In this document: positions 35,901-55,400 of the stretch, one piece after another
Numbering within the stretch: position 1 is the first letter of the stretch
How the letters are laid out: each line of letters opens with the position of its first letter
Assembly (NCBI GenBank): GCA_013420905.1
Contig: JAAXNY010000001.1
Location: 5,270,001 to 5,334,000, forward strand
DNA from: Collybia mongolica
Taxonomy: Eukaryota > Basidiomycota > Agaricomycetes > Agaricales > Clitocybaceae
Direction of reading: 5' to 3'
Length of the DNA: 64,000 bases
The notes under the pieces: model-generated
Told to the model about the DNA's origin: nothing
Databases searched by the model: none
What the model saw: only the letters and a program-made list of their open reading frames with translations
Translations under genes and position numbers: made by a program

Positions 35901-36841
35901 CGGCTTTCGCTGATTTCGGGAAAGTTCTCACCCACCGAATCAACGAAGCTAAACTCGACCCAAAGCGAGTCGCGATCATATGCGACGGGTCCGTCCCGCG
36001 GTCCGAGGACCTCCAAGCTACCTCAGCCTGGAGAGTCTGGTCGGACGGTACACTGTATAGCGGCCTTGCCCCCTGCGGGAATGCCACCTCGGACGATGCT
36101 GAGGCCTGCACCATCTCGAAAGGGGTGGACGAGGCCTTCGGCATCCCTAACTTAGACATCCGGAAAATTGATGTCTTCTCGGACTCCGTGAATGCAATCA
36201 ACCTGGTCATTGACCCGACGCACCACACGGCACACAAATGGGCCGCCAACGTGTCGGCCAAACTCGCTTACTGGCTAACGGTGAAACCGGACGCCAGTAT
36301 TACTCTGCACCACACACCAAAGGCGTGCGAGGTGCGCGAACATATACTTGCCCATGAAGCGGCCTCCACTACAGAGGTCCCACATGGAGAAGTAACACAC
36401 ACATCCCTCGCTAAGGCGAGGGCGGACGCAGTCCTACGTATGACGGACGCTTGGAGCGAATTGGCCAAGCAGAAGTCTTACATTGGGGCCCACTTCCTGC
36501 CGCTCCATGAAGGGAGTAAGCAACTATTGCCAAGCCACCTGAAAGGGGGGACTTGGATCGGAAAGGTGTCCACAAACACCAGTGATACCGTCAGGCTGGC
36601 GCGGGCCCTAACGGGCCACGCACCGATTGGCGCGTACAGACAGAGGTTCCTTAAGGAGAAGGAGACCTATGACTGCGACTGCGGCCTCGGAAAGGAGACC
36701 GTAGAACATGTATTCCGGTACTGTCCGCTTTACCAGCGGAAAACCCGGCCCGGGAGAGAGCTGACCCTTGTATGGGTCAGCAATTTCCTCCACGACAACC
36801 CGGCGGCCTTTGGGGTTTTCCGGGAACCCCGTTTAGAGTAG
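32996..36841 (+). CDS. LINE ORF2: endonuclease, reverse transcriptase, RNase H
   Basis: A 1281-residue replicase. The N-terminal APE endonuclease has QNVAKN, LLIQEPPW, GGDFNCPS and ASDHRPL. The reverse transcriptase spans about residues 480-780, with YRPIVLLNTLGKLIEK, FDLAQYFPS, GLGQGSALSP and the catalytic SYVDDGT. An RNase H-like domain follows near residues 990-1150 (ICDGS, DDAEA, FSDSVNA, and HTPKACEVREHILAHEA in place of the usual last Asp block). At the C-terminus a knuckle CDCG...HVFRYC matches the Tad/I-type pattern. No stop or frame break is seen, and all catalytic motifs I can check are intact. Confidence 0.96.
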   Translation: MNKLFRARIYCQNVAKNTLWLESLLESEKLKWDILLIQEPPWKVVRHTASLTAKEGAPVIGGPTHPEWTCFSPPGIDVNARPRVLTYVHNRLRPAKPALRPDIVSHRDIIAISLKGPGGPKTIVNVYSDAEGTAIRHISDHRDRFRDVGYMGGDFNCPSPLWDPEVIDNNPKATSLLEVTQDIGLERVGPPARMTTHIPRNNELRESILDLVFLEDTRTYQAEVRVGEAGASDHRPLTTVLPIRHEVMEGKKRIKPKSEEESDFLEMIGFNLDSIELPAEPSAEGIDHVAERIATIFKTAWDKFAEAGRVSARSKPWWNATCTEAKEMAMFTNERDDWRTLKRVTRQAKRVFFDERIEEVSHTTKRPWDLMNWVGPRKTPAAVTINHNGNPCNTNEELWNAIHSTFNSAHDRPTNMAEMGDKWKAPETRGWTKFSLKEMRDALQGTSNSSAPGPDNITWRHLKRLLVGPKAQAVIVWLANACLSCGHWPEHFKASRTVIIPKPGKATYDTPKSYRPIVLLNTLGKLIEKMLSTRLQFEAQAAGVLHPNQFGGVRQNSTEDAGVLLTHIVREGWTRGVKTSVVAFDLAQYFPSINHEVMINILEGQGFAPEIVAFFRSYLVGRKTRYVWGDDESPPFDSSVGLGQGSALSPILSALVLAILMKEFYRRNENESDLISYVDDGTIISQSKTWESNNAMLKRAYNIIFLMTRAMGLILEHAKSEGFHFSLLKSDDNPTIDLGHAPYTGATPLKPGILWRYLGFYFDRALSFKKHVEMYANKALTSSRALLALGNSARGLRPVHKRTLYRACVLPIATYGCRLWNVDGARIKGHLEALRKMQRKAALWITGNFRTTPKGAPETLAGLPPIHLHIRKLVERSHYRVRTLAKSHAVRNLIDGQAHLSVSRMSDAKRRRIKSGIMDSFSRLMDCNDDASPVFPLAQPGSRLLDWAAERVEIRPSPPPEKEKEKRKTAFADFGKVLTHRINEAKLDPKRVAIICDGSVPRSEDLQATSAWRVWSDGTLYSGLAPCGNATSDDAEACTISKGVDEAFGIPNLDIRKIDVFSDSVNAINLVIDPTHHTAHKWAANVSAKLAYWLTVKPDASITLHHTPKACEVREHILAHEAASTTEVPHGEVTHTSLAKARADAVLRMTDAWSELAKQKSYIGAHFLPLHEGSKQLLPSHLKGGTWIGKVSTNTSDTVRLARALTGHAPIGAYRQRFLKEKETYDCDCGLGKETVEHVFRYCPLYQRKTRPGRELTLVWVSNFLHDNPAAFGVFREPRLE

Positions 36842-37796: not shown

Positions 37797-40005
37797 TTAA
37801 ACATGCTCCTTGTGATCATTCGAAACCTTCTCCAGCGAATCATGGCTCCCCTCCCCAATCTTTCTCGCCGCATTCGCATCGTGGATTCTGCCCATGACAA
37901 CTGCGTGGGCTCGCCAGGGCTTGAGGCCGGGAGCGAAGAGCTCTTCCATACGCTCAAGAGGTATTTGTTTCGTTTCAGGAAGAACGAGCTGAGTGAAGGA
38001 GAGTCCTCGTCAATCCGCATAGAGGTTGGGATAGGCAGGAGAGACGTACATAAACGTAGAAGATCGAGAGAACCATCAGGCTGGCGAAAAACATATATAC
38101 GCCGTAGCCCATATCGGTGAACATCTGGGGCGTGAATCGTGCAATTAGGAAGCTAAAAAGGGGTCAGCGGACTGCTCGGAAACATGTCATTCCAATAAAA
38201 CTCACCCGAAGAGCCAGTTGGAGGCAGCCATGCAAGCTTGGGTGAACGTGCGGACATGTTGGGGGAAGAACTCAGCACCGACAACCCAAGGGGTACCGTT
38301 CCACGAAGGAGAGTAGAAGATCGTCCAGATGTAGAAAAAGGCAACTGCGACAGGATATCAACAAAAAAACGCGACCGATAGTGAGAGCAACGTACCTGCA
38401 CTCCTGCCTCCCGCATCCAAAGTAGGCTTTGGGTGGTCTGCAGGTTTGGCGATGGCAATGTAGGCGCCGATGTAATACATAGAAATTGCACCACCAACAG
38501 ACCCAACCATCAGAAGGTAGCGACGCCCGAGGGAATCAACGAGCCATAGCAGCCAGATCAGCGAGCCGATCAATTTAACTGAGGGGCAACTTAGGTTCAT
38601 GTATCATTATGTTTGTAGGATCGACGATTCTTACTGATTCCAAAGACGCCGGTTGTAAGTAGAGATGTACTCGTGCCGGTTAGACCGATGGATTTGAAGA
38701 CGGTAGGGCTGGGAGGCGAGGGATAAATCAGGTATGTGGAGCGAAGTCATAACATCCACATACGAGTAGTAATTGACAGCGTTGATACCAGTGCCGTTCT
38801 GCCATGCGAACAGACTCGCACCAATTAGCAATCTTTTGATGAGCAACTTGCTCGCAAAGACAGTCTTGAGGGGTCCCCAGAATCCGGCACCAGCGAGGCC
38901 GCGTTCATGCGCAATAGTCGCCTCGATTGAGCGAAACTCGTCGATCAAGTACGGAGCATCTTCGGGTAGGTGGCGGAGGTAGCAAAGGTTCTTCAGTGCT
39001 TCGGCGTTGCGGTCGCGAGACACGAGCCAGCGAGGGGATTCGGCCAGGAAGAATGCACCGATGGAGAGGAGACCTCCAGGCTGGTAAAAGACGGTTGGGG
39101 GTGGATGTATGCAAAGAATTCATGAATACCTACAATGAGCTGAACGGCGAATGCAATAAGCCATTGGCTGTGCCCGGGTTTGACATTTTGATGTGTGCCG
39201 TAGTTGATCCAGAAACCTTCAAGTCCCGTGAGTAGAAAAATATAATGAGTATGGAAGCCACCGTACCCACGACACCACCAATTTGCCAGCAAAGCTCGTA
39301 TAATCCAATCAGACGCCCACGGATGGCGGGCGGTGAGATTTCTGCAACATAAATGGGCTGAAGAACGCGGGGTTATCACTCCCGTGTTCCCTCTTAGCTT
39401 GGGAATGAAGCTCACAGCCAAGTTGGACGCGGCTCCAATTGCCAGGCCGACAATGACACGTCCAGCATAAATGATTCCTAGGCCAGTAGAGGCGCTGTCC
39501 AAGCATGTGAGATATGAGACCTGAAATGACCGCGACGGGGCGTACCTTGCGACACATTGTAGAATAGCACCCACGCAAAAAACGGTCCCCGAAGCCAGCA
39601 AGCCCCATTTGCGGCCTAAATAATATCCCATGGGGTATCCAAAGATAGCACCAAAGAAGCACCTAATGCGTGAGATGTAAGAGACCGAAATCGAGTGAGA
39701 CAGACAATACTCACCCGGCTTGGTATAGAGAAACGATATTTGCTGAGATGAGATTAAATTCCGTGGTCGTCTTGTTTGTAAGACTGAATTCTTTCTTGAA
39801 ACTGGCAAGGGATATCGAGGTTCCAATGAACGCAGAGTCATAACTAAAGAGATACAATCAATGATCGTTTGTTATTGACAGATAAGATGTCGACGTACCC
39901 AATCATAACAGCAGCGAAGGTCGCCACCATCGCTGCAAAGTATACTCTCCAGTTGTACACCTCAGAAGGCGTGGGCCTGTCTTCGACCCGAGAGAATTTT
40001 CCCAT
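37797..40005 (-). CDS. Quinate permease (MFS sugar-porter family, QutD/qa-y-like)
   Basis: A plasma-membrane proton symporter of the sugar-transporter group, probably taking up quinate. It starts MGKFSRVEDRPTPSEVYNWR, followed by helix 1 with ATFAAVMIGYDSAFIGTSIS; this DRPTP..VYNWR..IGYDSAFIGT pattern is that of fungal quinate permeases. Other blocks are YPMGYYLGRKWG, IYAGRVIVGLAIGAASN, GRLIGLYELCWQIGG, FWINYG, AESPRWLVSRDR, WQNGTGINAVNYYS and the C-terminal LPETKQIPLERMEELF then HDANAARKIG. The stop is at 37797. Around ten short introns are present; most but not all borders were checked. It is divergent from the 3-dehydroshikimate dehydratase gene, as expected for a co-regulated catabolic cluster. 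Sugar transport is possible, but the sequence pattern and neighbours favour quinate. Confidence 0.88.
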
Positions 40006-40751
40006 GGTGATAAAGGAGCGTCTGGGTGTGGCGGAGAGTCGACGTGGGCGGTGGGAAGAAGTCGACGAAAAACCAGGAAAAAATGACCCGCTATTTGTAG
40101 CCAGACTGTCAGCTAAGAGGAAAAGAAACGAATGTGGTGCAAAATAAGCCAATGGCATCGGGGACGGACATCAGTTCTTCCGGGTGCGAGTATCGCAGTC
40201 ATGTGGGAGGAGTTGAGGAGGAGATGTGAGGCCATCCACCGATCGTTCCTGGCAACACCCGATCACCTAAACGCCACCCTGCCACTTTTCAACCATCCTT
40301 ATCCCCACGTGGTCCCATAGAATGGAACAACATATCCCGCCACCATCAACTCCTGGGGTAGGCTCTCTCCGAATATTTAGGAGCGTGGTGCACGTCATAG
40401 TCATAGACTGCCACGAAAATCTGGCGGTGGCAAAACAAACCTAACAATAATTTAAATCTTTCGACACAAGTCAAGTTACATGAACACAAAACTCGAACTT
40501 TTCGCCCCCAGGCTGCCTACGGTGTTCAGGACACGTAAATTGAAGATCATTGAATCAGTGAGGTAGTACATTGTGGGGTAACGCCTTCATAGACCCCTTT
40601 GCGGATAAGAGTTTTGGAACGAGACCACAGAATCACACGTGCCACAGCCAAAACACACGACCCCGACCTCAAATTCTCACTTCACATGAAATCGTATCCT
40701 CATCCCTCCTAAGTGGACCACGAACCAGGAGCCTGTTAAGTCGAGACCACT
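40006..40751. promoter_or_regulatory. Divergent promoter region between quinate permease and dehydroshikimate dehydratase
   Basis: 746 bp between two divergent start codons with no supported gene, so it must hold both promoters. I could not identify a convincing activator site. Confidence 0.6.
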
Positions 40752-42057
40752 ATGCCGTCCAGAGTTCCGTATAGCTCTATCCCAATAGCAATTCCTTCAA
40801 TGTGTCTAGGTACGCAGTTCCCAATACTTACCTAATTCGCCAAATAATGTCAATATCTTACCAAGGACGTGCCTGGGTCCACGAGCTAGATGTAAAGTTT
40901 TCCGAGGCCGGAAAAGCAGGATTCAAGGGGGTTGAAATGTTTTGGGAAGATCTCGTTTGGGTCGCCAAGAAATTTGACCCCGACACCGACGAGAAAAATG
41001 AGGCAGTTATGTTACAAGCCGCCCAATATGCTCGATATTTATGTGATAAGAATGGGCTCACCATCATGGCGCTTCAACCTTTCTTAAACTATGAGGGGCT
41101 GCTAGATGAGGAGCGCCATAAAGAGATGATTGTCAAGCTCAAGTTATGGTTCAAAATCGTCAAGGTATTGGGCACAGACTTGATTCAAGTTCCTAGCCAG
41201 GTAAGCTCTTAAACTCATTATGATGGTAATGTCACAAAGTGATACCCTTGCCATCAGATGCACCGAGAGGGAACGACTGGAAATATAGAGAAGATTGTCG
41301 CTGATATCAAGGAAATCGGGGAACTCGGACTCAAGGAGACGCCTCCCGTTAGATTTGCCTATGAGGCACTGTCATGGGGGGCTTATATTAACCTGTATGT
41401 TCCTCCATCTTGGTTCGGCCAGCTCATGGAATAACAATCTAGGTGGGAGCAAGTTTGGGATGTGGTCGTAAAAGTAGACCTTCCCAACGTCGGAACAGGT
41501 ACGTACCATATCCGGCACCTGCTCCTAGGATTAACTTTCTTTTACAGTTCTGGACACCTATCATGTTAGATTTTTATGGCGTTTACCCGTCAGGTTAGCA
41601 CTCATGCCCCTCCCAGATCGCTGGCCGCGTCTATGCAGACCCCACATCGCCCTCTGGGAAGCAGCCAAACGCCGAAGCAGACCTCGCCGCCTCCGTTCGC
41701 CTCATGGAAACGACTCCAGGCCTTGTCGACAAAATTTTCTACGTCCAGCTCAGTGACGCCGAGCGCCTCTCCCCGCCACTCTCCCCCTCCCACCCCTTCT
41801 TCGACCCCACACAGCCGCCCCTCATGCAGTGGTCCCGCAACGCGCGCTTATTCCCATGCGAACCCGATCGAGGTGGGTATCTCCCGATCACTGATATAGC
41901 AAGGGCGTGGTTTGAGAAGCTGGGTTTCCGTGGTTGGGTCTCGTTGGAGATTTTCTCCAGGACCATGGGCGAGGGGGGTGAGAGTGTTCCGCGGGACCAT
42001 GCTCAAAGGGGTATCAAATCTTGGAATGATCTGGTGAAGGAACTTGAAGGAGCCTGA
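40752..42057 (+). CDS. 3-dehydroshikimate dehydratase (qa-4/QutC-like)
   Basis: Converts 3-dehydroshikimate to protocatechuate. Exons 40752-40809, 40866-41200, 41258-41394, 41443-41498, 41548-41564 and 41617-42057 sum to 1044 nt (347 residues). It is a xylose-isomerase-like TIM barrel. N-terminal SIPIAIPSMCLGRAWVHELD and FKGVEMFWEDL match fungal enzymes. The likely metal ligands sit in YEALSWGA, LDTYHIAGR, YVQLSDAE and SLEIFSR. The fifth exon is a 17-nt micro-exon encoding LDTYH, which carries a probable ligand; without it the metal site would be lost. The start at 40752 was chosen because the first exon supplies the conserved IPSMCLGRAW. It is cytosolic, and divergent from the permease. Confidence 0.93.
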
Positions 42058-42479
42058 GTATCTTGGCGATACCAGTTATATATTCCATATTCCGCCTATG
42101 TACCTTAGTGGGGAATAGGCCGCCGACATAGACATGTTAGAGCATATCAGTGGGGAAACTCCGATCCGCCTTTCAATTTCTCAAGTTATTTCATTTTGTG
42201 GGGCTTGGTTACCGGGCTTAAACATTCAAATTAGACTTTCCTCAATACATCACCATCGACTTCAAGTCAAAGCGATGACAAATTTTTGGTTAATAGAATT
42301 GCAGCCCAACCTCAAACAGTTACCGAACATCTGTGTCTGCCCAAAAAATGTGATTACCTGGTGATTCAATTGACCAGATATCTTGGTCGTTCTCTCGTAT
42401 TTGGAAGAAGCATCTGAAATATTAAATTCGAATAACAAATACAAAGACTGCAGGACAGACATGAAAGAATATTGTGCCC

Positions 42480-43342
42480 TTAAAGATCTACCTGAACACC
42501 ATCTAACCACGATTTCGCCTGACGTAGTAGCTTGTCATGTTCCTCTCCCCGAGCTCCAGGCATATCTCTTTTTACTCTGATCCCAGGCATGCACGCTTCT
42601 TGGCAATAGGCCAGATACCGATACCCAACGGGAAAGACGGCCAGTTTCTCGTCGTCGATCTCAGGAATACGTCGTGGATCCACAGCAAGGAGCTTGTCTT
42701 TCTCGTAAAAGTGGCGGACAAAGCGCATACCCCATTTCCCGGCTTCATCTTTTTCGAAAAACATACAAAAACTGAGGGACACGCGGTTAGTATATTGCCA
42801 CTGGATAGAGTGGTATACTTGCCGGCAATCCGATTCTGCATCCACAACAACTCTAAAGATGGAACGGAATTATCTTTAGCTAGGGAATAAACACGAAATC
42901 TCGTCCCAACTTACCCATTCGGCGGAAGCTCAAATCTCTGCGTGATCGTTGCTTTCATCTTCACGACCGCTCGAGTCCCAGCAAGATCCACGGAGGACCC
43001 ATGGACGCGGTGCATAATACTGACACCATTGTCCATGCCCGCCTGTGACGCAGAGATGAAATCTTCGATTGCCGTGCGGCCCGTCCACGTCGTGTACACA
43101 AATGCCCCAGGATGGAAGAGGGAGCGGAAATTCTCCCACTCCCGAGCATCACTGTACCCAGTACTGGTATAAGTAAACTAAATCATTTTGGATAATGTGT
43201 ACGCGGGTATTCACCGATACATGGGCCACCCTTCCGCGAGCTCTCTTAATTTGAAGCGCTCAAGCGCAAGATCGTTTGGACCATTATTGCGGATTGCATG
43301 GTCGGGACGGGTACCGGCAAGGAGTGAATGGAGGTCCGGCAT
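42480..43342 (-). CDS. SnoaL/NTF2-fold protein in the quinate cluster, role unknown
   Basis: A small protein of about 215 residues in four exons. It begins [20 protein letters not shown], continues [40 protein letters not shown], a stretch with [20 protein letters not shown], then [17 protein letters not shown]. After two more introns it reads [20 protein letters not shown] and ends DGVQVDL. The pattern (short helices, [11 protein letters not shown] strand, buried MHRVHG) fits a SnoaL-like NTF2 fold, which includes dehydratases, isomerases, decarboxylases and ring-hydroxylating dioxygenase small subunits. It shares a 294-bp divergent promoter with the dehydroquinase gene, which argues for a job in the same pathway. 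There is no signal peptide. The exact reaction is unknown. Confidence 0.75.
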
Positions 43343-43636
43343 ATCTAAAGGTCATACAGACGAAGCGACATTACAGAAACACACCTCCTTTATATATACA
43401 TAACGATGAAAGACTCCCAACAGTGGTGTCATTCGTGAAATCGTAGTAGAAAAAATCATCGGATCTCCCGGGACGTACCTCCGAAGGACCCTGCCTATCT
43501 CAGATCGAGGGAACAACTACTCTCCGATCAGCCACATGATTCCAGGGGAGGAAAGGCTAACCCTTAATCCGAAGCCTTCCCCACCACCCATAAACCGTAT
43601 TACTTACACGAGCCTAATGAACCACCTTGTTCTACC
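43343..43636. promoter_or_regulatory. Short divergent promoter between SnoaL-like and dehydroquinase genes
   Basis: Only 294 bp separate two divergent start codons. Contains TATATATA at about 43390 on the SnoaL side. A partial inverted repeat GGCTAACCCTTAATCC lies at about 43555; it resembles the ascomycete QA activator palindrome only weakly. Confidence 0.6.
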
Positions 43637-44118
43637 ATGTCTCCTAACCTCTCTATCCTCCTCATTAACGGCCCAAACCTGAACCTTCTCGGGACGCGAG
43701 AACCAGGGATATACGGCACCGACACTCTCCCCAATGTCGTCGCGCGTACCAGGACCGCTGCAGAGAAGGAGGGCGCAACATTCGCGGACTTCCAGAGCAA
43801 CCACGAAGGCGCTATCGTTGACAGAATTCAGCAGGCGGGAGTCGAGGGCGTAGACGGAATTGTCATTAACCCTGGTCGGTATGGTCTATGTTGCTTCAAG
43901 TATATTAATTATTCTGACCATGACCGGCTTCCTCAGGCGCTTTTACCCACACGTCGGTCGCCATTAGAGACGCCCTGACTGGGACCGCAATCCCATTCAT
44001 TGAAGTCCACGTCTCAAACATCCATGCTAGAGAGGCATGGAGACATCACTCCTACTTCACCGATAAGGCTGTTGCTATCATTGCTGGGTTGGGTACTAAG
44101 GGATATGGTGAATATTAA
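43637..44118 (+). CDS. Catabolic 3-dehydroquinate dehydratase, type II (qa-2/QutE-like)
   Basis: Converts 3-dehydroquinate to 3-dehydroshikimate. Exons 43637-43874 and 43937-44118 sum to 420 nt, giving 139 residues, close to the usual 145-150 for type II enzymes. All family blocks are present: [20 protein letters not shown] (active-site Arg and Tyr), [34 protein letters not shown] (catalytic His) and [20 protein letters not shown]. Stand-alone type II dehydroquinase in fungi serves quinate breakdown, while the biosynthetic activity is in the pentafunctional AROM protein. It probably forms a soluble dodecamer in the cytosol. Confidence 0.97.
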
Positions 44119-44449
44119 TATACGACCCCATCTTTGTTCGTGAAATTGTATTAACTGACCTCCAAGATTATGCCATAAATTTTGTTATTACAAGCTTCAA
44201 GAAGAGGGTAGTAGTAGTTTAGTATATTGTGATTGTTATACGTATACATGTGTATAAACTATCTGTAACGAAGTCTTGTTCAAAGGGAACGCGTGCTTCG
44301 ATTCATGACTTTAATTACCTTCCTGAGTCCAGCCGCCTCATTTGCTAAAATTCAAGGCGAGGCGACGCCATCTGCTGGTCCGGATTGGACATGCGATAGT
44401 CTGAGGTCATTAAAACTATATGTAAATATTATGCAACAAGAATGAGATA

Positions 44450-45805
44450 TCATTTCCGATGTGCGGGGTCTTTCCCCGCTGCATGGTCCACCTCAGTACC
44501 AACTACAGCCACATCACCCATAGTTTCGCATATGTTCCGAGCGGGGAGGTCAACGTGTCCGAGGATTCTTTGGTCGCTTCCAACCTCGAGCGTCGGGTTT
44601 GAGGTATACCACATCCGCTGTTGGGCTAGACCTTGCTCGATCATGGCCTGTAGAGCGTTTTTATTACCAGGGAAGGTGATATGCGAATTTGAGGTTTACC
44701 TGCACGCCATCGATCCCATGCCAGCCATGAGCGATGGCTACTTGAAGCATTGGGGTAGATCGTGGCTTGTACTGCCAGAGGACAGTTAGCACGCATTTAA
44801 CAACGTAGACCGCTGGCCTTACCGCCATCTCCAGGAAGAGACGTTTGTCGAGTACAGGTAGGGTTTCCGACGTCTCAGTAGGTTTGTTGTATGGTATCGT
44901 GAGAACCGAAGATACAGTTGTATATACCATACGCTCCTCATGTGTGATCGGAGAAAAAGAGGCTGTAAAAAGTTCGAATGAGGTTGATAGCAGCAGCAGG
45001 AGAAAGCTCACGGATGGCGCCGACAACCATAAGGATCCTGACAGAATCTGGCTGGGCAAGGTGTTTCTCGACTTCATCTGGGTTTCTGAGATAGATCAAG
45101 GACCCCTTTTCAGTGAGGTGCGGTAGAGAGGCCTGAACAGCGCGAACTTCTTCAACATCACGATTGATTAGGAAGATGGGACTGAGCCCCAGAAGGGTGA
45201 GTGCGTGGGCCGCGGACCGCGTCGTTGCGCCACCCCCGATGACAAGACCAGCACCCCTGATAGCTGCAGGATAGGTCGCCTCGGAGGAGATGGTGAGTTT
45301 GGGGAATTGCATACGAACTGCTCGTAAGAGTGCATTCCGGACGCCGAGAACTGAGATGATGGAATTCGGCAGAGTTCGCTCTGACAAGAATTTGCAACAT
45401 ACTGTCTGTATTTTGGCCAACGAGTTTGTAGCCTGTGGGTGTAGGAACCTTGACAATCGTATTGCACGCCCCCGTAATTTTGCTTTCCGGCGAAATCTCG
45501 TCAAGGTATGAAAGCATATCGGTCTTGAGAGGCATCGTTACACTGTCATTGTTCAGTAAATCTTGGAATAGAAGCGGGAGGTGTACTCACGCCGATCCAC
45601 CAAAATCATCACTGGACAAAACTTTTAATAGATCTTCAGTCACTTTGCTGGACGACCAGAGTTCATAAGTGTTTAGTGCGCCTGCTCCCCATGCATTGAA
45701 ACAAGCGCCGTGTAGTGCCGGTGCAGCAGAGTGGGCGATGGGGTATCCAAACAAGTAAAACTTCTTGCCCACAGGCGGGGGGTTGGGCGGCAAGGATGGG
45801 GACAT
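44450..45805 (-). CDS. Quinate/shikimate dehydrogenase (AroE-like, qa-3/QutB-like)
   Basis: Oxidises quinate to 3-dehydroquinate and/or shikimate to 3-dehydroshikimate. Start at 45805: MSPSLPPNPPPVGKKFYLFG, then YPIAHSAAPALHGACFNAWG (substrate-binding block), VTMPLKTDML (catalytic Lys), ITGACNTIVKVP, VGQNTDILGVRNALLRAV (catalytic Asp; GQNTD and ILGVR are joined over an intron), GLVIGGGATTRSAAHALTLL (nucleotide loop) and FLINRDVEEV. The C-terminal part is SFSPITHEERMVYTTVSSVL, FLEMAYKPRSTPML and DGVQAMIEQGLAQQRMWYTS. INRD after the second strand suggests NAD rather than NADP. Five or so introns were inferred; the one opening at GAI-P and closing before SFSPI replaces a frame that would stop early. 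It is downstream of the dioxygenase gene in the same direction. Confidence 0.9.
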
Positions 45806-46126
45806 GATGATGAAGCTCGCATCGTTCCCAATCTAAAAGGTTTTATTTGGAAGGACGGGTTGCGCGCAACCGAGCGGAAGAAACATCTGCGATCTGGTCT
45901 GTCCAATAGGTCTCGTGATCGGAAAAAGTAGAATTACAAGTTACATAATGGATGGTCATGATATGGCAAGTTTCTGGGTTATCGTTGTCAAGACCTTGCA
46001 GCTTGCAGATGTGGTCGCATGGTCATAACCTGGGTATGTCATACCAAATCATAGGTTTATAGTGAGGACTCTGGAGGTGGTACATTTCTCGTTCTCATAA
46101 GTATACAACATGAACAAATAAACGGT

Positions 46127-47615
46127 TTACTGAGCAAACGCTGGCATGGTTACTTTCCTCACCTCTGCACATTCTTCCAGTGTGCCCAGGATAAAATCCT
46201 GTTTGAGAAGAAGATGGGGCTTTGCCTCTGCGAACCCACGGGACTTGGTCAATGATATATCGCTTACAAGTTCTGGCTCCTGTGTAGAGTAATGAGATTC
46301 AGTCAGAAAGGTCGGGACGATGCCACGTACAACGATCAGCGATGTTCGGACACCAAAAACGGCATCACTCGTTATGTAGGGGTCATTTTTAAGGTACAGT
46401 GCTGTAACAAGTTTTTCGAATCCGGGTGCCTGTAGAAAATACATAACCTGTGCAACAAGTGAAGGAAGCAGAACAAACCTTAATCATTATATGCAAATGC
46501 GCAGGCCTGAATACATGGCGTCCTAGTTTAGAAATCAAGCTACCAACTGTGCCGTCGCTCGGAATAGCATATGGGACAGGACTGGGATATAGATAATTAG
46601 CACATCGGAAAGTCGCAACCTTGCAACGGGGTTTGACATACACAACAGCGCGAAAGGAGTATGAACCATCATCGGCGGAATACAACCGGCCTCGACAATC
46701 TGGCTTTTCGCGAACAGTGTACTAAGGAAAGGGTTTAATAATAGAGTTAGAGTAGGTGCCATGAGGGCTCACCTGCGTGTCATATACACCAAATCCATCC
46801 GTCTCCCATGTATCAATGACAGCACCGGCGATTGGATTTCCTTTCGTGTCAAGAACACGTCCCTCGACGAACATATAGTCTCCTTTTCCTTCAGATGCTA
46901 TAGATTCACCATTCGCGACTACGCGAGCGTCGGTACCTGATTTGGAGACCAAACTAGAGCCATGACGTACTGTCATGTGCGTCTTCCGTGAAGAATGGGC
47001 CGAGAACGGTAGCTTCAGTTGCATTGGGTGGTTTGGCATTGTTTAAAGTGTCGATCAGGGTGGATACCCCAAGAACATCAGAAAGGAGAATGAATTCTAC
47101 GAAAGGTCGGTAAGGATCTATGACATGACACATAGAAGTACAGGCCATATACCTTGTCGGATGTCAGAACACATCTTTCCTGTTTCCGTTAAGAACTTAA
47201 TCGAAGCCCTGTAATAACCATAGTCAAAATTTTGGGTGGCTTGTCGGGGGTACTGGCGAGGCTTACATCCATTCATCCGATGTGATGGAGGTTTCTCGAA
47301 TAAAATCATGCAAGTGATTAGTCTGACGAATGCGATATAAATACCCATGTAGGGACAGAATAATCGACATGACCGACAAGGTTCTTGAATATGAACTTCA
47401 TCCTCTCGTCTGGGCCTGTGACATGCCCAAGTCAGAAAGTATAATGATGAAACAGAATTCACAGGGCTGGCCTACAATTCGAGTTTATGGCATGGACGTT
47501 GCTTGTGATTGACTCAGCCGACATATCCACAATCTTCGGCAGCTTCGAGAGGTCGATACCATGGCTTGCTGCGATCTTATTTGCCTTAAGAGCGGGTTCG
47601 TTGTGGATAGACATA
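46127..47615 (-). CDS. Intradiol ring-cleavage dioxygenase, hydroxyquinol 1,2-dioxygenase type
   Basis: A non-heme Fe(III) dioxygenase that probably opens hydroxyquinol to maleylacetate. The start is ATG 47615 (MSIHNEPALKANK); the frame is open further upstream but has no ATG. The N-terminal dimerisation domain shows HDFIRETSITSDEWM, SIKFLTETGKMCSDIRQEF and LLSDVLGVSTLIDTL. The catalytic part shows ATEATVLGPFF, IAGAVIDTWETDGFGVYDTQ (first Tyr ligand), VPYAIPSDGTVGSLI (second Tyr ligand) and GRHVFRPAHLHIMI (two His ligands). The ATE.TVLGPFF stretch and the N-terminal domain separate it from protocatechuate 3,4-dioxygenase and favour hydroxyquinol over catechol, as does maleylacetate reductase nearby. 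There are many short introns, not all fixed. The C-terminus after the last intron is poorly conserved. Confidence 0.87.
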
Positions 47616-48540
47616 GTTTCCAGTGGTATCACAAGATGGGGGAGTGGGGGGGGGGAAGACAAGTGCAGTAGTTCTGGGTCTTTATTCGAAGGCTGAGTGT
47701 GGGTGCCTCTGAGAGCTCATTGTAGTTCCGGCCATAGCTGAAAGTGGAGACGCCCATATTTGTCATCTACGTTGATCATCCCGTGATCAGTCGTCCCCAC
47801 CAAAGCGGATAGTTACAATCAGTGCGCGACATATAGAGTACTGGAACATCCACGACGATGTCAATCATTGTCTGAATTGATACGTCAGAACTCTTCATCT
47901 ACATCTATTTGTTAATAGATCATCAGGATGAATACTAATGGCCCTTGCACCTTGCAATCCACAACCTGGCTTCCGTCACCACCAGCTCTCAATAGCACAC
48001 CCGTCAGCTCTTTGATGTCCATTTAAGGGGAATTGGGAGGTTGTGGGGGGACACATTGTTGGGACTAACACCGTTTGGGAGGCCGTATTCTGCACTTGTC
48101 GCGGAGACAGGATAGGATGTAAGATCTCATTTATAGTTGATGGGTACTGGTACACGCTTTAACTGTGTGATCTGTCCAAAGTCAGTCCAGGCCGGTTGGT
48201 TGCGCGTATTCGTATAGGTCAACGGTGGCAAACAAGAAGTCGGATCGCCCATCCAATTCTTCCATGTCCTTCCATCTACCTTGGCCAAACGGGCCTCAAA
48301 ACGTCTTACACCTTACACCTGCTTATCAATGGCGCAGACGAGATTGTCCTGCCGGACACAAACTTAATCCTTGACAGACTTTTGGGCAATAGATGTCGCG
48401 ACCGAAATAATCGTTGTGTTATTCGTCATCATATAGGATATCATTTTTGAGATTCTGAAGAAAGATAAAGTCTGTTGAGTAGAGAGGCAATTAGTTCGAT
48501 ATATGAAGGGATGTAGGTTATAATATAAGCAAAGAAAAAA
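47616..48540. other. Gene-free stretch
   Basis: No supported gene. Contains the dioxygenase promoter, a C/G homopolymer at about 47647-47656 and, at the right, the start of the duplicated block. Confidence 0.5.
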
Positions 48541-49300
48541 TCAGGGATAAACATGATGTCGTCAACCAAGGAAACCCAAGTTAGACAATGTAGATAAAAT
48601 TTGAAGCATCATATGAGAGTATATTGAGAACTGAAAGTACTCACATGAACTATATTGGTTGTACTAGCTTCCAGATCGCTTGACTCGGAGTCATCAACAT
48701 CATAAGAAGAGGGGAAAAAAAAGAAAGAAAATCTAGGTGTTGTTTGGTACTATTTGGTCAAGAAGTCATGCCTCTAGGATGCTGAACCTGTCTAATGCCG
48801 AAATCATCATGAGGAAAATGAATTTAGTGTAGGAATGTACTCATTGACCTGACCACCCATGATTCGAAGTTTGCTACCTTGGATATCTCTGTTCGGTGGT
48901 TAAACTGCAACGCGAACCCACCTAGGAATATCATATCATCCCGCCATTCATCTACGGGGCTCACCTTCTCGTGTCATCTTTAGTGCTGGAATCTGGGGTC
49001 CTCGTGACTCGAAAGGCTCAGTTTCAGTAAAACCCTTTCTCCTATCCTCCTTCAACAGGTGAAGGAGGGCGAAGATTCAAAACAACTCTTCACAGTTAGC
49101 GTATATGTTTAGACCACCATACACGCACCTATGGACGCCATGGAACACTGTTATGATCGCGCAGAAGCTCGACTCCAAGAGTCTCATTGCGCTAGGAGAC
49201 CAACCATTGGCCTTGGGAGGCTATCGCACTGCATACATGCCCTTCAAACCATGTTCCTAACATCGTATGTTAGATCCGAGGTATTTCGCCCTTGATTTGT
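48541..49300 (+). pseudogene. Decayed copy of the 5' part of the maleylacetate reductase gene
   Basis: This stretch aligns by eye with about 51428-52290, the promoter and first exon of the intact gene. Shared islands include GTCGTCAACCAAGG and GACAATGTAGATAAAATTTG in the promoter part, AACTGCAACGCGAACC, CATTCATCTACGGGGCTCACC (for CCCTTCGTCTACAATGCCCTACC), CGTGTCATCTTT, CAACAGGTGAAGGAGGGCGA, CGCAGAAGCTCG, GCGCTAGGAG and GATCCGAGGTAT at the first exon border. The ATG of the intact gene reads ATC here, and several deletions break the frame. The likeness stops at the first intron, so only the 5' part was copied or survives. Confidence 0.72.
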
Positions 49301-50066
49301 ACTTGAACGACAACAGATGTCCACAGTGATGTCCCTCACGTCCGAACATGCACATAGAATGCTCTTCTACTTCAATGTAACTGTTACGGGATCAAAAAGG
49401 CTTAATGTCAGCTGTCACTGTCGCGATCCCTACCCTTGCGACATTTGCCACCCTTGTATTCTCTGTCACTGTCATTGGGACAAACATCGATTGGAGGGCC
49501 GTATACAAAGCCTCGTAATGGTGACGGGAAGTGGAAAGTCCTGACCGACCAGTGTTGCTAGCTTGCAGCTCGCTACCAATACCCGTGCATGTGTGGCGCA
49601 TAGTCAATGCAGTCTGCTTGGTTTCCCAGGAGCATATTCGCGCAAGTCACTAATGAATTTGCACCTCATCAAAGACGCCAGCGGTTCGTCAGGCCTTCAG
49701 GTCTCGTCCACATCCTCTCTATCGCCGCCCACGGCCCTTTTAAATGTAAAAGGAAATGTATCAGAAAACTTTCTAATGTCATGCAGTAACTCCATTTGCA
49801 ATCAGATTCTAAGTATCACTTTACCTCCCAGGTGAATTCGATCAAACCCAGATTTAGCTTGATCGTTTACCCGTATGTGCATAAACCCCTATCTGCGCAC
49901 GTACAATGGAACACATCTTTGTAATACGACAAGAAAACACTCGACCGTTCAACGATAGACAACAATGAAGATACGCATGTAGACAAAGCCTTTACAGAAA
50001 GGTAATATCTTGGTGGTTCTGTACTACACGACGTTACCAAAAAGTAAAAGTAAAAGGTTACACATA
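49301..50066. other. Gene-free stretch
   Basis: No supported gene. Open frames at 49317-49835 lack recognisable domains. Confidence 0.5.
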
Positions 50067-50726
50067 TCAGAAGATAGTGGCAGTGGTATTGGGAGCTGCA
50101 GTAGGATGGAAAATATATACAGGACGTTCAGGATCAGTATCAGTGGTATTAACCCAAGGATGGTTAACGTAAGTTTGTTGTTGATATGAACCCTCCGACT
50201 GGAGCGTTTGGTAAAGCTTCTTTTTTCCTTCCTGATCTACCCAATAGATACGGACAGTCTCAAATCGGTTGTTGAAGAATGTAACGTAGGTGGAGGCTCC
50301 ACCGTTAAGAGACCGAAGGCAAGGCACGGCTGCCATCTCGTTAATGGGAATCAGGTTTGTGCTATTGTTCCTGCCAGGGCGAGTTTGGTTGTCGATGATA
50401 GCCTTCTTCACGTTATCATCAGACAGGGGATGGAAAATGGCGAAAGCGGTGTCTGTGTAAACGATCCAAGGGTGGCCGACATGTCTGCTGGTCATACTGG
50501 GAGTTGGGGGCGAGTGTTTTGTATAGCTTTAGCTTCCCATCATAGTCAATCCAGTTGACCTTGACTTCAACGCTTAAACGGTTGATGAACGTGACAGTGG
50601 TGGACGAGCCGTCCTTGATAGATCGAAGGCAAGGCGCAAGACCTGCCGGGTTCGGGACAAGATGCTGTTAGGGTCTCACATAAGGAGGAAAAATCTAGAC
50701 AACACGGAAAAGATGCTTACAGCCAT
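50067..50726 (-). CDS. Double VHL-beta-domain protein with a frame break between the domains
   Basis: Exon 1 encodes only MA (ATG at 50726-50724), then an intron of about 60 bp, then HLVPNPAGLAPCLRSIKDGS. Domain 1 reads STTVTFINRLSVEVKVNWID and LKLYKTLAPNSQYDQQT; domain 2 reads LRSLNGGASTYVTFFNNRFE, VRIYWVDQEGKKKLYQTLQS and SYQQQTYVNHPWVNTTDTD, ending at 50067. LRS...G..T.VTF.NR...V..YW.D.EGK..LY.TL..G..Y.QQT is the von Hippel-Lindau beta domain pattern. At about 50479-50484 the frame changes: domain 1 ends QQT and the next residues GHPWIVYTDTAFAIFHP are in another frame, as if two bases were missing. This may be a real disabling mutation, a sequencing error or an undetected splice. VHL-beta domains bind partner proteins; the role here is unknown. 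Confidence 0.7.
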
Positions 50727-51917
50727 TGACGACGTTAGAGAAGTGTGTTGTGTATGGGAGAGCAGCTGGAACACTGAATTTTTAACGTCTTGCCTCGGCG
50801 TATTTATACAGGCTCAGAGTACCTTTCCTCGTGCCCTTCCTGTCTTCGTGGAATGATTGCGTAACCCAATTAAATTACTGTAGATATGGGTATCAGTATT
50901 CTGATGGTCGAGATGCGAGATAGAAATGGTTCATTACACATAAGTTGACTCCGCCCTTCTCAAAAGTAAGTACCCAAGCTTATACCAGGCAGTATTGTTC
51001 TACGTAGCGGTCTTGGCACGTATGGATCATTTGCAAGCTCGCCTTTCCTGCATAGAAATACGTAACTGCAGCTGTATAGTGCCTCCGTGATCTTGAAAAT
51101 TCCGCACGTCAGGTATTATGGCCGCCCAAACCTTCTCCCCAGAATCACTTCAAGACTTCTTGGGGACAACCGATGTTTTCGGACGACCTGAGCCATTACG
51201 TGTTCCAGAATAGCTTCCTGGTCTGCTCAAAGCTGTCAGTCACAAACCACAAGGGACGCAGTACATCCACTTCGTAAACTTTCAGTCGGCAAAGCGGAAT
51301 GTGCCGTTAACGAGAATGACATTAGTGTGTAATCTGTGACAAGTAGAGGTTCAATTGGAGGGAAGTATATCTGTGTAGCAGTTAGTTCGTTCATGGAAAA
51401 TGGAAAATAAGACGAGTCATCAGGGCAAGAAAAAATCAGAGATGAACATTGTGTCGTCAACCAAGGGAATCCAAGTTGGACAATGTAGATAAAATTTGCA
51501 ACATCATATAGGGCGGCTTGAAGTTTGGAAGCACTCACATGTACTACTTGTCGTTTCCTTCAGACTGCTTGGATCAATACGGACTCCAGAGAGAAACCAT
51601 GTAAACAAAAAAGAAAACATTTTATTTTGTAGTGCTTGGTTGAATGTCCGACCGATTTGCCGTTACACGGCACACCTCTGACCTACGCACATTCTGGGTT
51701 TCCACTGGGATAACTTGCAGGAAAGGCGCGCCAAAGCTCGTGAACGCTATTACTATCATGAAGTAACGAATGCAGCATAAGAATTCACACCCATTCACAC
51801 GACCCCCCACCGATCGAAGTCTGCTTTCAAATCAGAGCAGATTCGATTCGATATGTTCACGCTGTGGAATGGTCCAGGGCTAAATTGCGACACGAACCTT
51901 CCTCAGGACGTTTTATC
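50727..51917. other. Upstream region of maleylacetate reductase, partly duplicated
   Basis: No supported gene. The part from about 51428 onward is the partner of the decayed block at 48541-49300. Open frames at 51236-51810 have no domain. Confidence 0.55.
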
Positions 51918-53083
51918 ATGCAGCCCTTCGTCTACAATGCCCTACCTTCGCGGGTCATCTTTGGTAATGGAACACTTGATCAGGTGCCCCAGGAGATCAA
52001 GCGGCTCGGCTGCAGCAAAGCCCTTATTCTTACCACCCCTCAACAGGCGAAAGAGGGCGAGGAATTGAAGAAGCTCGTCGGGGATCTAGCAGTTGGCATA
52101 TACACTAATGCCACCATGCATACCCCTACGAATGTCACTGACGATGCTGTCGGGATCGCACAAAAGCTCGGCGCCGACTGTGTCGTCGCGTTAGGAGGAG
52201 GATCAACCACCGGGCTTGGAAAGGCCATTGCGCTTCGTACAGACCTCCCGCAAATCGTGATTCCAACCTCGTATGCGGGATCCGAGGTATGTCATACACA
52301 ATCCGCGCTTCACCAACAATTAAACTACTTTTACGCAGGCAACGCCGATCATTGGCCAGACAGAGAATGGTCAGAAGACGACGCAGAAGACCATGAAAGT
52401 CCTTCCCGAAGTTATCATCTACGATGTCTCCCTTACCCTTACCCTGCCCCCACAAATGACCATAACGTCCGGCCTGAATGCGATTGCCCATGCTGTCGAG
52501 GCACTGTACGCACAGGAGGCCAATCCTGTTATCGACCTCCTCGCACAAGAAGGCATCAAGAGCCTTGCGAAAGCTTTGCCGGTTGTGATACAGGGAAAGG
52601 ATCAGGACATTCTTCAAGCCAGAAGTGATGCATTGTACGGCGCCTGGGCTTGCGGGACGTGCTTGGGTGCTGTAGGAATGTCCCTGCACCACAAGCTATG
52701 TCATACACTCGGTTAGCCTCTTTTTCTTTTGCAATTGCTGCCAACTCCCCTACCATACAGGTGGAACATTCAACCTACCTCACGCAGAGACCCATACCAT
52801 TATCCTTCCCCATGCAATTGCATACAATGCGCCCTATGCGAAATCTGCCATCGCGAAAGTGGCATCGAGCCTGGGCGTTGAGAACGCTGCGCAGGCTGTA
52901 TATGACCTTGCTAAAGATCTTGGTGCACCTTACTCGCTGAAAGAAATCGGGATGAAGGAGGAAGATTTGGAGAAGGCGGCAGATATTGCTGCAAAAAGTC
53001 CTTATCCAAACCCTGCTCCGTTGGAGAGGGAGAAGTTGGTGAAATTACTCAGAGATGCATGGGCCGGAACCCGGCCAGAGTAG
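51918..53083 (+). CDS. Maleylacetate reductase
   Basis: Reduces maleylacetate to 3-oxoadipate with NAD(P)H. Exons 51918-52286, 52339-52711 and 52761-53083 sum to 1065 nt (354 residues), the usual size. It starts MQPFVYNALPSRVIFGNGTL, a typical iron-containing alcohol dehydrogenase/MAR start. Then DCVVALGGGSTTGLGKAIAL (nucleotide-binding GGGS), LPQIVIPTSYAGSEATPIIG, QTENGQKTTQKTMKVLPEVI, NAIAHAVEALYA, GMSLHHKLCHTLGGTFNLPH and ETHTIILPHAIAYNAPYA, with conserved His residues. It is cytosolic. Together with the intradiol dioxygenase it forms the lower hydroxyquinol pathway. A broken 5' copy lies at 48541-49300. Confidence 0.95.
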
Positions 53084-54125: not shown

Positions 54126-55400
54126 GGTGGGATCTAGGATATAGGTGTAAGGAAAGTAGGGCGAAGGGGGCTCCACTGAACTCACTGAGTTCCGTTTATA
54201 ACAACAGCCTGCAAAGCAGCATATTCCGAGTCCGCAGTTATGCATCATGGAGGGGTGACTGCGGCATATCATGCGTTTTAAACCCAGGTCACATGGAATT
54301 CTCCTTTGGATTTCTGACCTCCTTTAAGGGCTGAGGAATTCACAGAGTGGGCCTCGCGGCGGGCTGAAGGCTAAGTGAACTCCAACGAGTCGACGGGTAA
54401 GTACTGGCCGCAGTCGTGGTGTTATCAGCGACTCCAATGAGGTGGGACATCAATTATTTAATTGTGTAGATGATATCTTGCGTACATAAAATTCATCATG
54501 ATAAACGGTGAGCACGATAATTGATTCCACAACGACGTACTAACACTGCTGCAAATGCGACTTCTGGAGACTGGAAAGATCTTCTAGCCGTTCTGTGTAG
54601 TGCGAAGAGAAACGGTTCAAGTGAGTCCTGTTACAACTTAGAACAAAAATGCATGCCACTCCAATAGCACGTTCGAGGGGAGGAAAATAAGCCAGGTGTC
54701 CGCGTGAAGGATGATAAGACCGATCTAACCGGATCTAGCTATAGAGAGGACTCGAGGAGGAGGGTTGGAGGCGGAGGTGAACATCTAACACTTGAATCAA
54801 TGGCCAGAGAGAGTGCAGACGGTGAAGAAGGGGCTGTGAAGCGAAAAAATCGTAATTTTGAACACATTCAAAAAGACTGAGAGGGTCATTGAAGAAGAGG
54901 CAAGGTGCAAGTGTTTCTCCTGGGTTTTGGCTTTTGCCCAAGCTTTTACATATCGCCCTTCCAGAACCATCTAACTAACTGGTTATCATACCACTAGTGG
55001 AGGCTGATTCTGAATACAATCCCCTGAAAAGTTATATTCTTGAGGCCGTAACCGTTTCCACGAACGCAGCAACGAACGTAGGCCCGGTCTTTGATGGGAC
55101 GCGTTTAGCAGGCGTTAACACAGCGTTCGTAGAACATTTGTAATACCAAATCCAACAGCTCTTAACCTCAAGAGAACAGAAAGATCAATAAAACCATACT
55201 TACACCACGATATCCGTTGATTGGCTAATTTCCGGGCCAGCTAAAGGAACTATAGGTGGAACCTTTGTTCAAACGAGGATGAGACTACTTGTATTTACAA
55301 TTTCCGAGCATACAAGTGACGCACGTGTGTACTACGGAAGCCAGCTGTTCCTCAACGGGACCGCGCTGGTGGTAATACGCCTCCGAGAATTTTGGGAAAT
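54126..55400. other. Gene-free stretch
   Basis: No supported gene; the open frame at 54735-54941 lacks a domain. No repeats were recognised. Confidence 0.5.

What the first reader, a model, noticed from the sequence alone, without database searches (positions are those of the whole stretch)
37797..53083. Basidiomycete quinate-to-3-oxoadipate catabolic gene cluster
Seen: quinate permease, dehydroshikimate dehydratase, type II dehydroquinase, quinate/shikimate dehydrogenase, hydroxyquinol-type intradiol dioxygenase and maleylacetate reductase within 15 kb. Known: in ascomycetes the qa/qut clusters stop at protocatechuate. Inferred: here the upper quinate genes are joined to the lower hydroxyquinol genes, giving one locus that takes quinate or shikimate from plant material to a TCA precursor. 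I do not know of a described basidiomycete cluster with this gene set.
Basis: partly seen in the sequence, partly recalled or inferred. Interest (0 to 1): 0.88.

Follow-up and report, generated by a model that had tools for sequence, protein, structure and literature searches.

The report
Mushroom quinate cluster with ring cleavage
A fungus related to the mushroom Collybia nuda carries seven intact neighbouring genes that would take up quinate, a common plant acid, likely turn it into an aromatic acid, likely remove that acid's carboxyl group and likely break the ring for energy; two of these genes, the predicted quinate dehydrogenase and the predicted ring-cleaving dioxygenase, have counterparts on one and the same assembled contig in 23 of 42 compared species.

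Summary
Spliced models give intact genes for all six named proteins, ending exactly at the stated coordinates. No protocatechuate-to-hydroxyquinol hydroxylase was found in the cluster, so it does not encode the whole route; the decarboxylase offers a clustered exit to catechol. The dioxygenase is nearest to hydroxyquinol enzymes and, like the maleylacetate reductase, was found once in the genome; no protocatechuate 3,4-dioxygenase was detected. The arrangement is not unique: dehydrogenase and dioxygenase share a contig in 23 of 42 species, whereas decarboxylase and dehydrogenase do so in 0 of 16. An ascomycete quinate cluster beside a different, secreted dioxygenase is published (PMC8896014), so 'clusters stop at protocatechuate' is too strong. 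I call it a new variant of the qa/qut kind: a widespread mushroom linkage of quinate and ring-cleavage genes plus a patchy decarboxylase. No expression or enzyme data exist here.

The parts
37797..40005 (-). Quinate/shikimate permease of the sugar-porter MFS family (QutD/qa-y type), 12 exons, 537 aa
   Evidence: Spliced model; Pfam Sugar_tr 2.2e-126; TIGR00879 over its cut-off. The substrate is inferred from neighbours.
40752..42057 (+). 3-dehydroshikimate dehydratase (TIM barrel, QutC/qa-4 type), 6 exons, 347 aa; divergent from the permease
   Evidence: AP_endonuc_2 4.3e-27; only NCBIfam match DhshikDhtase_QuiC 1.9e-26, far under its full-length cut-off; best solved match 5hmq 7e-22, a 637-aa chain named 4-hydroxyphenylpyruvate dioxygenase; one paralogue at 33-40% identity elsewhere
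42480..43342 (-). PEP2/PPP2-AGDC1-type cofactor-free hydroxybenzoate decarboxylase (SnoaL_4), 4 exons, 228 aa; predicted protocatechuate to catechol
   Evidence: Model corrected; SnoaL_4 2e-9; PDB 7jmr 1.9e-47 and 6w54 gallate decarboxylase 1.5e-39; eight catalytic/binding residues kept, V150 as in PPP2; found once in the genome
43637..44118 (+). Catabolic type II 3-dehydroquinate dehydratase, 2 exons, 139 aa
   Evidence: DHquinase_II 7.9e-55; aroQ and four subfamily cut-offs passed; only such gene found in the genome
44450..45805 (-). Quinate/shikimate dehydrogenase, 6 exons, 367 aa
   Evidence: Shikimate_dh_N 3.2e-17; NCBIfam best Shik-DH-AROM 154 bits, under its cut-off of 196; nearest other matches in the genome are two AROM-like loci at 37% and 32%; Collybia nuda counterpart 91%
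46127..47614 (-). Hydroxyquinol-type intradiol ring-cleavage dioxygenase, 10 exons, 331 aa; upstream of and on the same strand as the dehydrogenase
   Evidence: Dioxygenase_N and _C; PDB 8r2v, 8r2w; NCBIfam best is chlorocatechol 1,2-dioxygenase 5.5e-52, under its cut-off; only intradiol dioxygenase detected in the genome; Collybia nuda counterpart 92%
48898..49287 (+). Decayed copy of the maleylacetate reductase first exon (66% identity, frames broken), between the dioxygenase and the intact reductase
   Evidence: blastn 4e-20; alignment and three-frame reading
50067..50667 (-). VHL beta-domain protein gene (exon frames), lies inside the cluster; no evident role in the pathway
   Evidence: ORFs; PF01847 6.7e-9 on the longer frame; only such match in the genome
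51918..53083 (+). Maleylacetate reductase, 3 exons, 354 aa; Asn in place of the metal-ligand Asp in SGLNAIAHA (position judged by eye)
   Evidence: PDB 3jzd 1e-127, 3hl0 4e-122, 3w5s 6e-121, but a chain named MAR1 (9ph0) only 5e-25; NCBIfam best is lactaldehyde reductase 3e-42, under its cut-off; found once in the genome; metal-site rule from PMC5125639

Best explanation
Seven intact genes at 37,797-53,083 make up what is predicted to be a quinate/shikimate catabolic cluster that would import quinate, likely convert it through dehydroquinate and dehydroshikimate to protocatechuate, likely remove the carboxyl group, and likely open the ring with the only intradiol dioxygenase detected in the genome, towards 3-oxoadipate. 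Predicted steps: the permease brings in quinate or shikimate; the dehydrogenase gives 3-dehydroquinate (or dehydroshikimate from shikimate); the type II dehydroquinase gives 3-dehydroshikimate; the dehydratase gives protocatechuate. Because no protocatechuate 3,4-dioxygenase was detected, protocatechuate would have to be decarboxylated before cleavage. I propose two exits that share one dioxygenase: (a) oxidative, by an unlinked flavoprotein hydroxylase, to hydroxyquinol, which the dioxygenase opens and the maleylacetate reductase reduces to 3-oxoadipate; (b) non-oxidative, by the clustered PPP2-type decarboxylase, to catechol, which the same dioxygenase would open. Exit (a) would be the older one, since dioxygenase and dehydrogenase stay together in many mushroom genomes; exit (b) would be a lineage-specific addition.
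For: Families and intact frames. Dioxygenase nearest to hydroxyquinol enzymes. Reductase: with Asn in place of the metal-ligand Asp as described for this subfamily (PMC5125639, passages). Dioxygenase, reductase, decarboxylase and dehydroquinase each found once in the genome. No second PF00775 gene detected, hence no detected protocatechuate 3,4-dioxygenase: (3 of 3 candidates scored). Decarboxylase residues W39, R43, D44, T64, W65, H90, Y154, Q189 match those shown to be needed or to bind in AGDC1 (PMC7862292, passages), and V150 is PPP2's residue, which goes with protocatechuate preference. Same order and strand in one environmental model, P0358. A yeast in which catechol and hydroxyquinol both arise from protocatechuate and one dioxygenase opens both is in print (Blastobotrys, PMC9204233, passages). 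Protocatechuate hydroxylase and hydroxyquinol dioxygenase in A. niger, and decarboxylation of protocatechuate to catechol in A. sojae: PMC12388069, passages. A decayed reductase copy lies 1.3 kb from the dioxygenase start, divergent to it.
Against: No expression, growth or enzyme data. No regulator was found in the cluster, no QA-1F/QUTA-like palindrome in the window (motif recalled) and no word of 7-9 bases shared by all five promoter regions compared. The reductase is separated from the rest by 4.3 kb with an unrelated gene. The decarboxylase is not on the dehydrogenase's contig in any of the 16 species compared, so its tie to quinate may be accidental here; no Collybia nuda counterpart appears among the 120 listed of 482 hits. 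19 of 42 species do not have dehydrogenase and dioxygenase on one contig. The hydroxylase for exit (a) was not identified; the one flavoprotein tested on contig 11 is nearest to hydroquinone and phenol hydroxylases, and a 2019 paper on a white-rot fungus says this conversion of protocatechuate had been reported only in a yeast (PMC6763618, passage). NCBIfam's best names for the dioxygenase and the reductase are chlorocatechol dioxygenase and lactaldehyde reductase, both under cut-off. Exon-by-exon searches can miss divergent paralogues.
Confidence: 0.6

Rival explanations
1. Hydroxyquinol-only route: an unlinked decarboxylating hydroxylase turns protocatechuate into hydroxyquinol, and the clustered decarboxylase is a neighbour with another job, for example gallate to pyrogallol.
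For: Dioxygenase and reductase are hydroxyquinol-type; the decarboxylase shares no contig with the quinate dehydrogenase in 16 of 16 other species; protocatechuate to hydroxyquinol is known in A. niger (PMC12388069); 4-hydroxybenzoate and vanillate go by this kind of step in Trametes (PMC12915361).
Against: The decarboxylase lies between the dehydratase and the dehydroquinase, shares a 294-bp divergent promoter region with the dehydroquinase, and has PPP2's protocatechuate-type valine instead of AGDC1's tyrosine, although that valine is the commonest residue in the family (114 of 120). In Tetrapyrgos its counterpart and a dioxygenase carry consecutive locus tags (007590, 007591).
Confidence: 0.25
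2. Catechol-only route: all protocatechuate is decarboxylated to catechol, which the dioxygenase opens to cis,cis-muconate; the maleylacetate reductase serves other aromatics and is a bystander.
For: Clustered decarboxylase with full active site; one yeast dioxygenase opens catechol and hydroxyquinol with similar efficiency (PMC9204233); lactonase-family (PF10282) genes, of a family that might handle muconate, exist elsewhere.
Against: The dioxygenase scores far better against hydroxyquinol than catechol enzymes of known structure; the reductase and its decayed copy both sit beside the dioxygenase; the decarboxylase is not linked to the dehydrogenase in 16 of 16 other species compared.
Confidence: 0.1
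3. The genes are neighbours without shared function, or serve a biosynthetic or detoxifying task instead of growth on quinate.
For: An NRPS-like adenylate reductase lies downstream and no shared promoter word was found.
Against: Seven genes whose predicted steps follow one another within 15 kb, two divergent gene pairs, and linkage of two of them in 23 of 42 species.
Confidence: 0.05

Closest known systems
Ascomycete qa/qut quinate clusters (Neurospora crassa, Aspergillus nidulans; read in PMC12610400, passages)
   Same: Quinate dehydrogenase, catabolic dehydroquinase, dehydroshikimate dehydratase and quinate permease together
   Different: qa/qut carry an activator-repressor pair and their enzymes end at protocatechuate; here no regulator was found and a decarboxylase, a ring-cleaving dioxygenase and a maleylacetate reductase are added
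Ceratocystidaceae CDO4 locus (PMC8896014, passages)
   Same: The four quinate genes lie close to an intradiol dioxygenase gene in many, not all, of the genera
   Different: CDO4 is predicted to be secreted (signal peptide) and has a zinc-finger regulator gene next to it; here the enzyme has the catechol-dioxygenase N-terminal domain and is nearest to hydroxyquinol enzymes, and a reductase and a decarboxylase are present
AGDC1 gallate decarboxylase (Arxula/Blastobotrys) and PPP2 (Madurella mycetomatis) (PMC7862292, passages; PDB 6w54, 7jmr)
   Same: Family, all eight named residues; V150 as in PPP2
   Different: The passages read describe enzymes, not a gene cluster; here the gene sits inside a quinate cluster. 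Activity is untested
Hydroxyquinol dioxygenases of white-rot fungi and A. niger (TvHDX1 in PMC12915361, HqdA in PMC12388069; passages)
   Same: Family and predicted reaction
   Different: The passages read set them in routes for lignin-derived and other aromatics; here the gene is tied to quinate dehydrogenase
Blastobotrys raffinosifermentans protocatechuate route (PMC9204233, passages)
   Same: Oxidative and non-oxidative loss of the carboxyl group run together, one dioxygenase
   Different: An ascomycete yeast; decarboxylase and dioxygenase genes carry distant locus tags (ARAD1C45716g, ARAD1D18458g); the passages read concern protocatechuate and gallate, not quinate

Membership tests
qa/qut quinate utilisation cluster | Quinate dehydrogenase, type II dehydroquinase, dehydroshikimate dehydratase and permease side by side | tested here: met
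   all four intact within 37,797-45,805, with the decarboxylase gene among them
qa/qut quinate utilisation cluster | Clustered activator (qa-1F) and repressor (qa-1S) | tested here: not met
   No such gene among the seven models or the 10 flank or gap frames scanned; flanks were not fully annotated. It works like a qa/qut cluster but is not filed as an orthologous qa/qut locus
qa/qut quinate utilisation cluster | Induced together by quinate | not testable with these tools
   No expression data
AGDC1/PPP2 hydroxybenzoate decarboxylases | Significant match over nearly the full protein | tested here: met
   7jmr 1.9e-47 and 6w54 1.5e-39, residues 19/20-232 of the first, 232-aa model
AGDC1/PPP2 hydroxybenzoate decarboxylases | His-Asp dyad, tryptophan clamp and substrate-binding residues (AGDC1 W35, R39, D40, T60, W61, H86, Y150, Q192) | tested here: met
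   8 of 8 identical; dyad, clamp, R39 and Y150 in 120 of 120 homologues, T60 in 108, Q192 in 118
AGDC1/PPP2 hydroxybenzoate decarboxylases | Decarboxylation of protocatechuate or gallate in vitro | not testable with these tools
   Needs purified enzyme
Hydroxyquinol 1,2-dioxygenase | Closest to hydroxyquinol enzymes among solved intradiol dioxygenases, with N- and C-terminal domains | tested here: met
   NCBIfam lists no hydroxyquinol model for it and ranks chlorocatechol dioxygenase first, under cut-off
Hydroxyquinol 1,2-dioxygenase | Substrate preference for hydroxyquinol over catechol | not testable with these tools
   Needs assay
Maleylacetate reductase (cd08177) | Closest to solved maleylacetate reductases; Asp metal ligand replaced by Asn or Arg | tested here: met
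   SGLNAIAHA in the sequence (aligned by eye), rule from PMC5125639
Quinate/shikimate dehydrogenase | Shikimate_dh_N domain, separate from AROM, in a quinate cluster | tested here: met
Quinate/shikimate dehydrogenase | Oxidises quinate with NAD | not testable with these tools
   Best solved matches are AROM polypeptides, so the substrate rests on context
Type II dehydroquinase | Family score over curated cut-off | tested here: met
   TIGR01088 171.6 bits against 169.85; PDB 3-dehydroquinate dehydratases at 7.5e-52

The most novel reading that the evidence does not exclude
A mushroom quinate cluster has recruited a cofactor-free protocatechuate decarboxylase, so that quinate carbon leaves protocatechuate as catechol, is hydroxylated once by an unlinked flavoprotein, and then passes through the clustered hydroxyquinol dioxygenase and maleylacetate reductase: a third fungal exit from protocatechuate that uses all seven clustered genes in one line and replaces 3,4-ring cleavage.
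Probability: 0.25. Interest if true: 0.7.

Novelty: new variant of a known kind. Interest (0 to 1): 0.55.

Why it matters
Quinic acid is a common plant metabolite that microbes use for carbon and energy (PMC12610400, abstract), but how mushrooms use it is little described. Five literature searches with quinate terms and five on the other steps listed no paper whose title or shown abstract describes a basidiomycete quinate cluster; I saw listings for most, opened few, and only open-licence papers are held. If right, the locus shows that in Agaricales the quinate route is joined to the kind of ring-cleavage enzyme otherwise studied in lignin breakdown, which makes the question of how mushrooms finish protocatechuate directly testable with seven named genes. 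The decarboxylase is also of practical use: a PPP2-type enzyme raised the titre in a yeast pathway to cis,cis-muconate (PMC7862292, passage).

Tried and rejected
A home-made gene finder trained on the window missed or fused genes and was dropped for hand splicing, checked against homologues. The first decarboxylase model (232 aa) kept four residues of intron 1; the 228-aa model agrees with relatives and was used afterwards. A search for a QA-1F/QUTA-like palindrome (recalled motif) gave 0 matches and a shared-promoter-word search gave none in all five regions. I asked whether the decarboxylase came from ascomycetes: in a tree of the window protein and 44 of the 120 listed homologues, 24 basidiomycete rows form one side of a branch against 17 ascomycete rows (99/93), so recent transfer from ascomycetes is not supported; its place among Mycenaceae rows (90/87, under the tool's strong mark) hints at transfer or patchy loss but proves neither. 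A scan of prokaryote genomes found no relative. The idea that the clustered dioxygenase is one of several was not borne out. The idea that it is a protocatechuate 3,4-dioxygenase is not favoured: those match at 4e-11 or weaker.

Full report
Observation. I rebuilt the genes by hand from the raw sequence. Seven complete, intact genes lie between 37,797 and 53,083: permease (-), dehydroshikimate dehydratase (+), a SnoaL_4 protein (-), type II dehydroquinase (+), quinate/shikimate dehydrogenase (-), intradiol dioxygenase (-) and maleylacetate reductase (+). Together they have 36 introns of 48-63 nt, 35 of them GT-AG and one GC-AG. Pfam supports each. The seventh gene, 43,342-42,480, was missed.

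Setting. The window is C1:5,270,001-5,334,000 of a 46-Mb genome in 26 contigs. The dioxygenase and the dehydrogenase are 92% and 91% identical to Collybia nuda proteins, so the host is a relative of that mushroom; the genome itself is unnamed. Outside the cluster I found a cellobiohydrolase-like gene at 18.7-20.3 kb (named from its sequence, recalled), a cyclophilin, an amino-acid permease fragment, an RRM protein, a LINE-like element at about 30.8-36.8 kb (by eye), a DUF7330 gene and an NRPS-like adenylate reductase. None is an obvious pathway member. The flanks were not fully annotated. No FAD_binding_3 hit lies in the window, though only 20 of 65 candidates were scored.

The overlooked gene. 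Against all solved structures (E up to 1) the SnoaL_4 protein matches two: pea pathogenicity protein 2 (7jmr, 1.9e-47) and gallate decarboxylase (6w54, 1.5e-39). The paper on these enzymes, read in passages (PMC7862292), says that both decarboxylate gallate and protocatechuate without an organic cofactor, names the residues concerned, and explains AGDC1's higher gallate activity by Y146, which is V165 in PPP2. In the window protein 8 of 8 named residues are kept, and the specificity position is valine (V150). Among 120 homologues the dyad, the clamp, R39 and Y150 are invariant, and the specificity position is V in 114, A in 5 and I in 1, so valine is the family's usual state and only AGDC1 differs. 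I therefore predict protocatechuate to catechol. Activity is inferred, not shown.

Which ring-cleavage route. The dioxygenase's best solved matches are an intradiol dioxygenase (8r2v, 8e-109) and a hydroxyquinol 1,2-dioxygenase (8r2w, 1e-104), then PnpC, a 6-chlorohydroxyquinol dioxygenase and another hydroxyquinol dioxygenase (4e-71 to 4e-63); chlorocatechol and catechol enzymes come at 3e-37 and weaker, protocatechuate 3,4-dioxygenases at 4e-11 and weaker. NCBIfam offers no hydroxyquinol name and ranks chlorocatechol dioxygenase first, under its cut-off. The reductase matches maleylacetate reductases (3hl0, 3.5e-122) and carries Asn where metal-dependent relatives have Asp, as described for this subfamily (PMC5125639); a chain named MAR1 matches only at 5e-25, and NCBIfam's best is lactaldehyde reductase under cut-off. 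In the whole genome only this one dioxygenase was detected by protein and by family (3 of 3 candidates scored), and only one maleylacetate reductase, one decarboxylase and one type II dehydroquinase. With no protocatechuate 3,4-dioxygenase detected, protocatechuate would have to lose its carboxyl group before intradiol cleavage. This inference is limited by exon-by-exon searching.

Protocatechuate to hydroxyquinol needs a decarboxylating hydroxylase (PhyA in A. niger, PMC12388069; MNX1-type enzymes act on 4-hydroxybenzoate and vanillate in Trametes, PMC12915361). None is among the seven genes. A 2019 white-rot paper says the protocatechuate conversion had been reported only in a yeast (PMC6763618). 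Flavoprotein genes exist elsewhere in this genome; the one tested on contig 11 is nearest to 8r2u, the hydroquinone hydroxylase TvMNX3, and to phenol hydroxylase, so the hydroxylase remains unidentified. In the yeast Blastobotrys both losses of the carboxyl group run together and a single dioxygenase opens catechol (kcat/KM 3950 per mM per s) and hydroxyquinol (2130) (PMC9204233). That is my model for this cluster.

Conservation. The protein database gives the length of the longest contig a protein comes from, and an identical length within one species marks the same contig. Of 42 named species that appear in both top-120 lists, 23 have dioxygenase and dehydrogenase on one contig, among them Collybia nuda (17,315 bases), Desarmillaria tabescens (221,204), Cyathus striatus (315,353), two Lyophyllum and 12 named Mycena. 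The 19 misses include Marasmius, Moniliophthora, Gymnopus, Collybiopsis, Tetrapyrgos and six Mycena. Internal controls: decarboxylase and dehydrogenase share a contig in 0 of 16 species, decarboxylase and dioxygenase in 2 of 15, one of these, Tetrapyrgos nigripes, with consecutive locus tags. A shared contig is not proof of adjacency on large scaffolds. One environmental gene model from a 6.6-kb contig (P0358) carries a match to dioxygenase residues 187-247 (55%) followed by one to dehydrogenase residues 13-118 (52%), the same order and strand as in the window, which is evidence of neighbourhood in at least one relative.

History. A 66%-identical decayed copy of the reductase's first exon lies at 48,898-49,287, and a 121-base repeat precedes both copies. 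This suggests that an earlier reductase copy stood next to, and divergent from, the dioxygenase, which supports the reductase as a true member despite the 4.3-kb gap. The decarboxylase tree (window plus 44 of 120 homologues) places the window protein with an environmental sequence among Mycenaceae rows; 24 basidiomycete rows are separated from 17 ascomycete rows. No Collybia nuda decarboxylase was among the 120 listed of 482 hits. The decarboxylase thus looks patchy, and its place in the cluster may be recent.

What is known. Quinate clusters in ascomycetes carry the upper genes plus regulators, and their enzymes end at protocatechuate (PMC12610400, passages). In many Ceratocystidaceae the four genes lie near CDO4, an intradiol dioxygenase with a signal peptide (PMC8896014, passages), so ring-cleavage linkage is not wholly new, though the enzyme differs. 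My searches (listings, few papers opened) showed no described basidiomycete quinate cluster; they cover open-licence papers only, and Gluck-Thaler and Slot 2018 on plant-chemistry gene clusters, which may list one, could not be read.

Verdict. A real, intact and partly conserved cluster with a catabolic function that is predicted. The upper genes and the ring-cleavage link are well supported by sequence and linkage; the exit from protocatechuate is inferred. It is a new variant of a known kind, of moderate interest.

Noticed in passing
window 48898-49287 and 48532-48652 versus 51427-51546: Decayed maleylacetate reductase first exon and a 121-base repeat also found upstream of the intact gene: a local duplication with one copy lost.
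   Followed up: yes
window 50067-50667 (-): VHL beta-domain gene with internal related repeats inside the cluster; the only VHL match found in this genome. Why a VHL-domain protein sits there is unexplained.
   Followed up: partly
window about 30813-36841 (+): A LINE-like element (long gag-like and endonuclease/reverse transcriptase frames, judged by eye) ends about 1 kb from the cluster's edge.
   Followed up: no
G000 C13:1464442-1465965 and C4:2456808-2458387: Two separate loci each match type I dehydroquinase and the shikimate dehydrogenase domain, as if the AROM gene, or its C-terminal half, were present twice.
   Followed up: no
G000 C11:1626490-1640210: Several flavoprotein hydroxylase genes close together; the one tested is phenol/hydroquinone hydroxylase-like. 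Possible source of the missing hydroxylation.
   Followed up: partly
P0263, P0267 (Bondarzewia mesenterica): Two dehydrogenase models also carry a short-chain dehydrogenase domain PF00106: gene fusion or misprediction beside the quinate gene.
   Followed up: no
window about 55400-58030 (-): NRPS-like adenylate-forming reductase (AMP-binding C-terminal and NAD_binding_4 domains) just downstream of the cluster.
   Followed up: no
window 28120-28809 and about 29264-29665 (-): A cyclophilin gene with a second cyclophilin-like frame beside it, the second judged by eye only.
   Followed up: no
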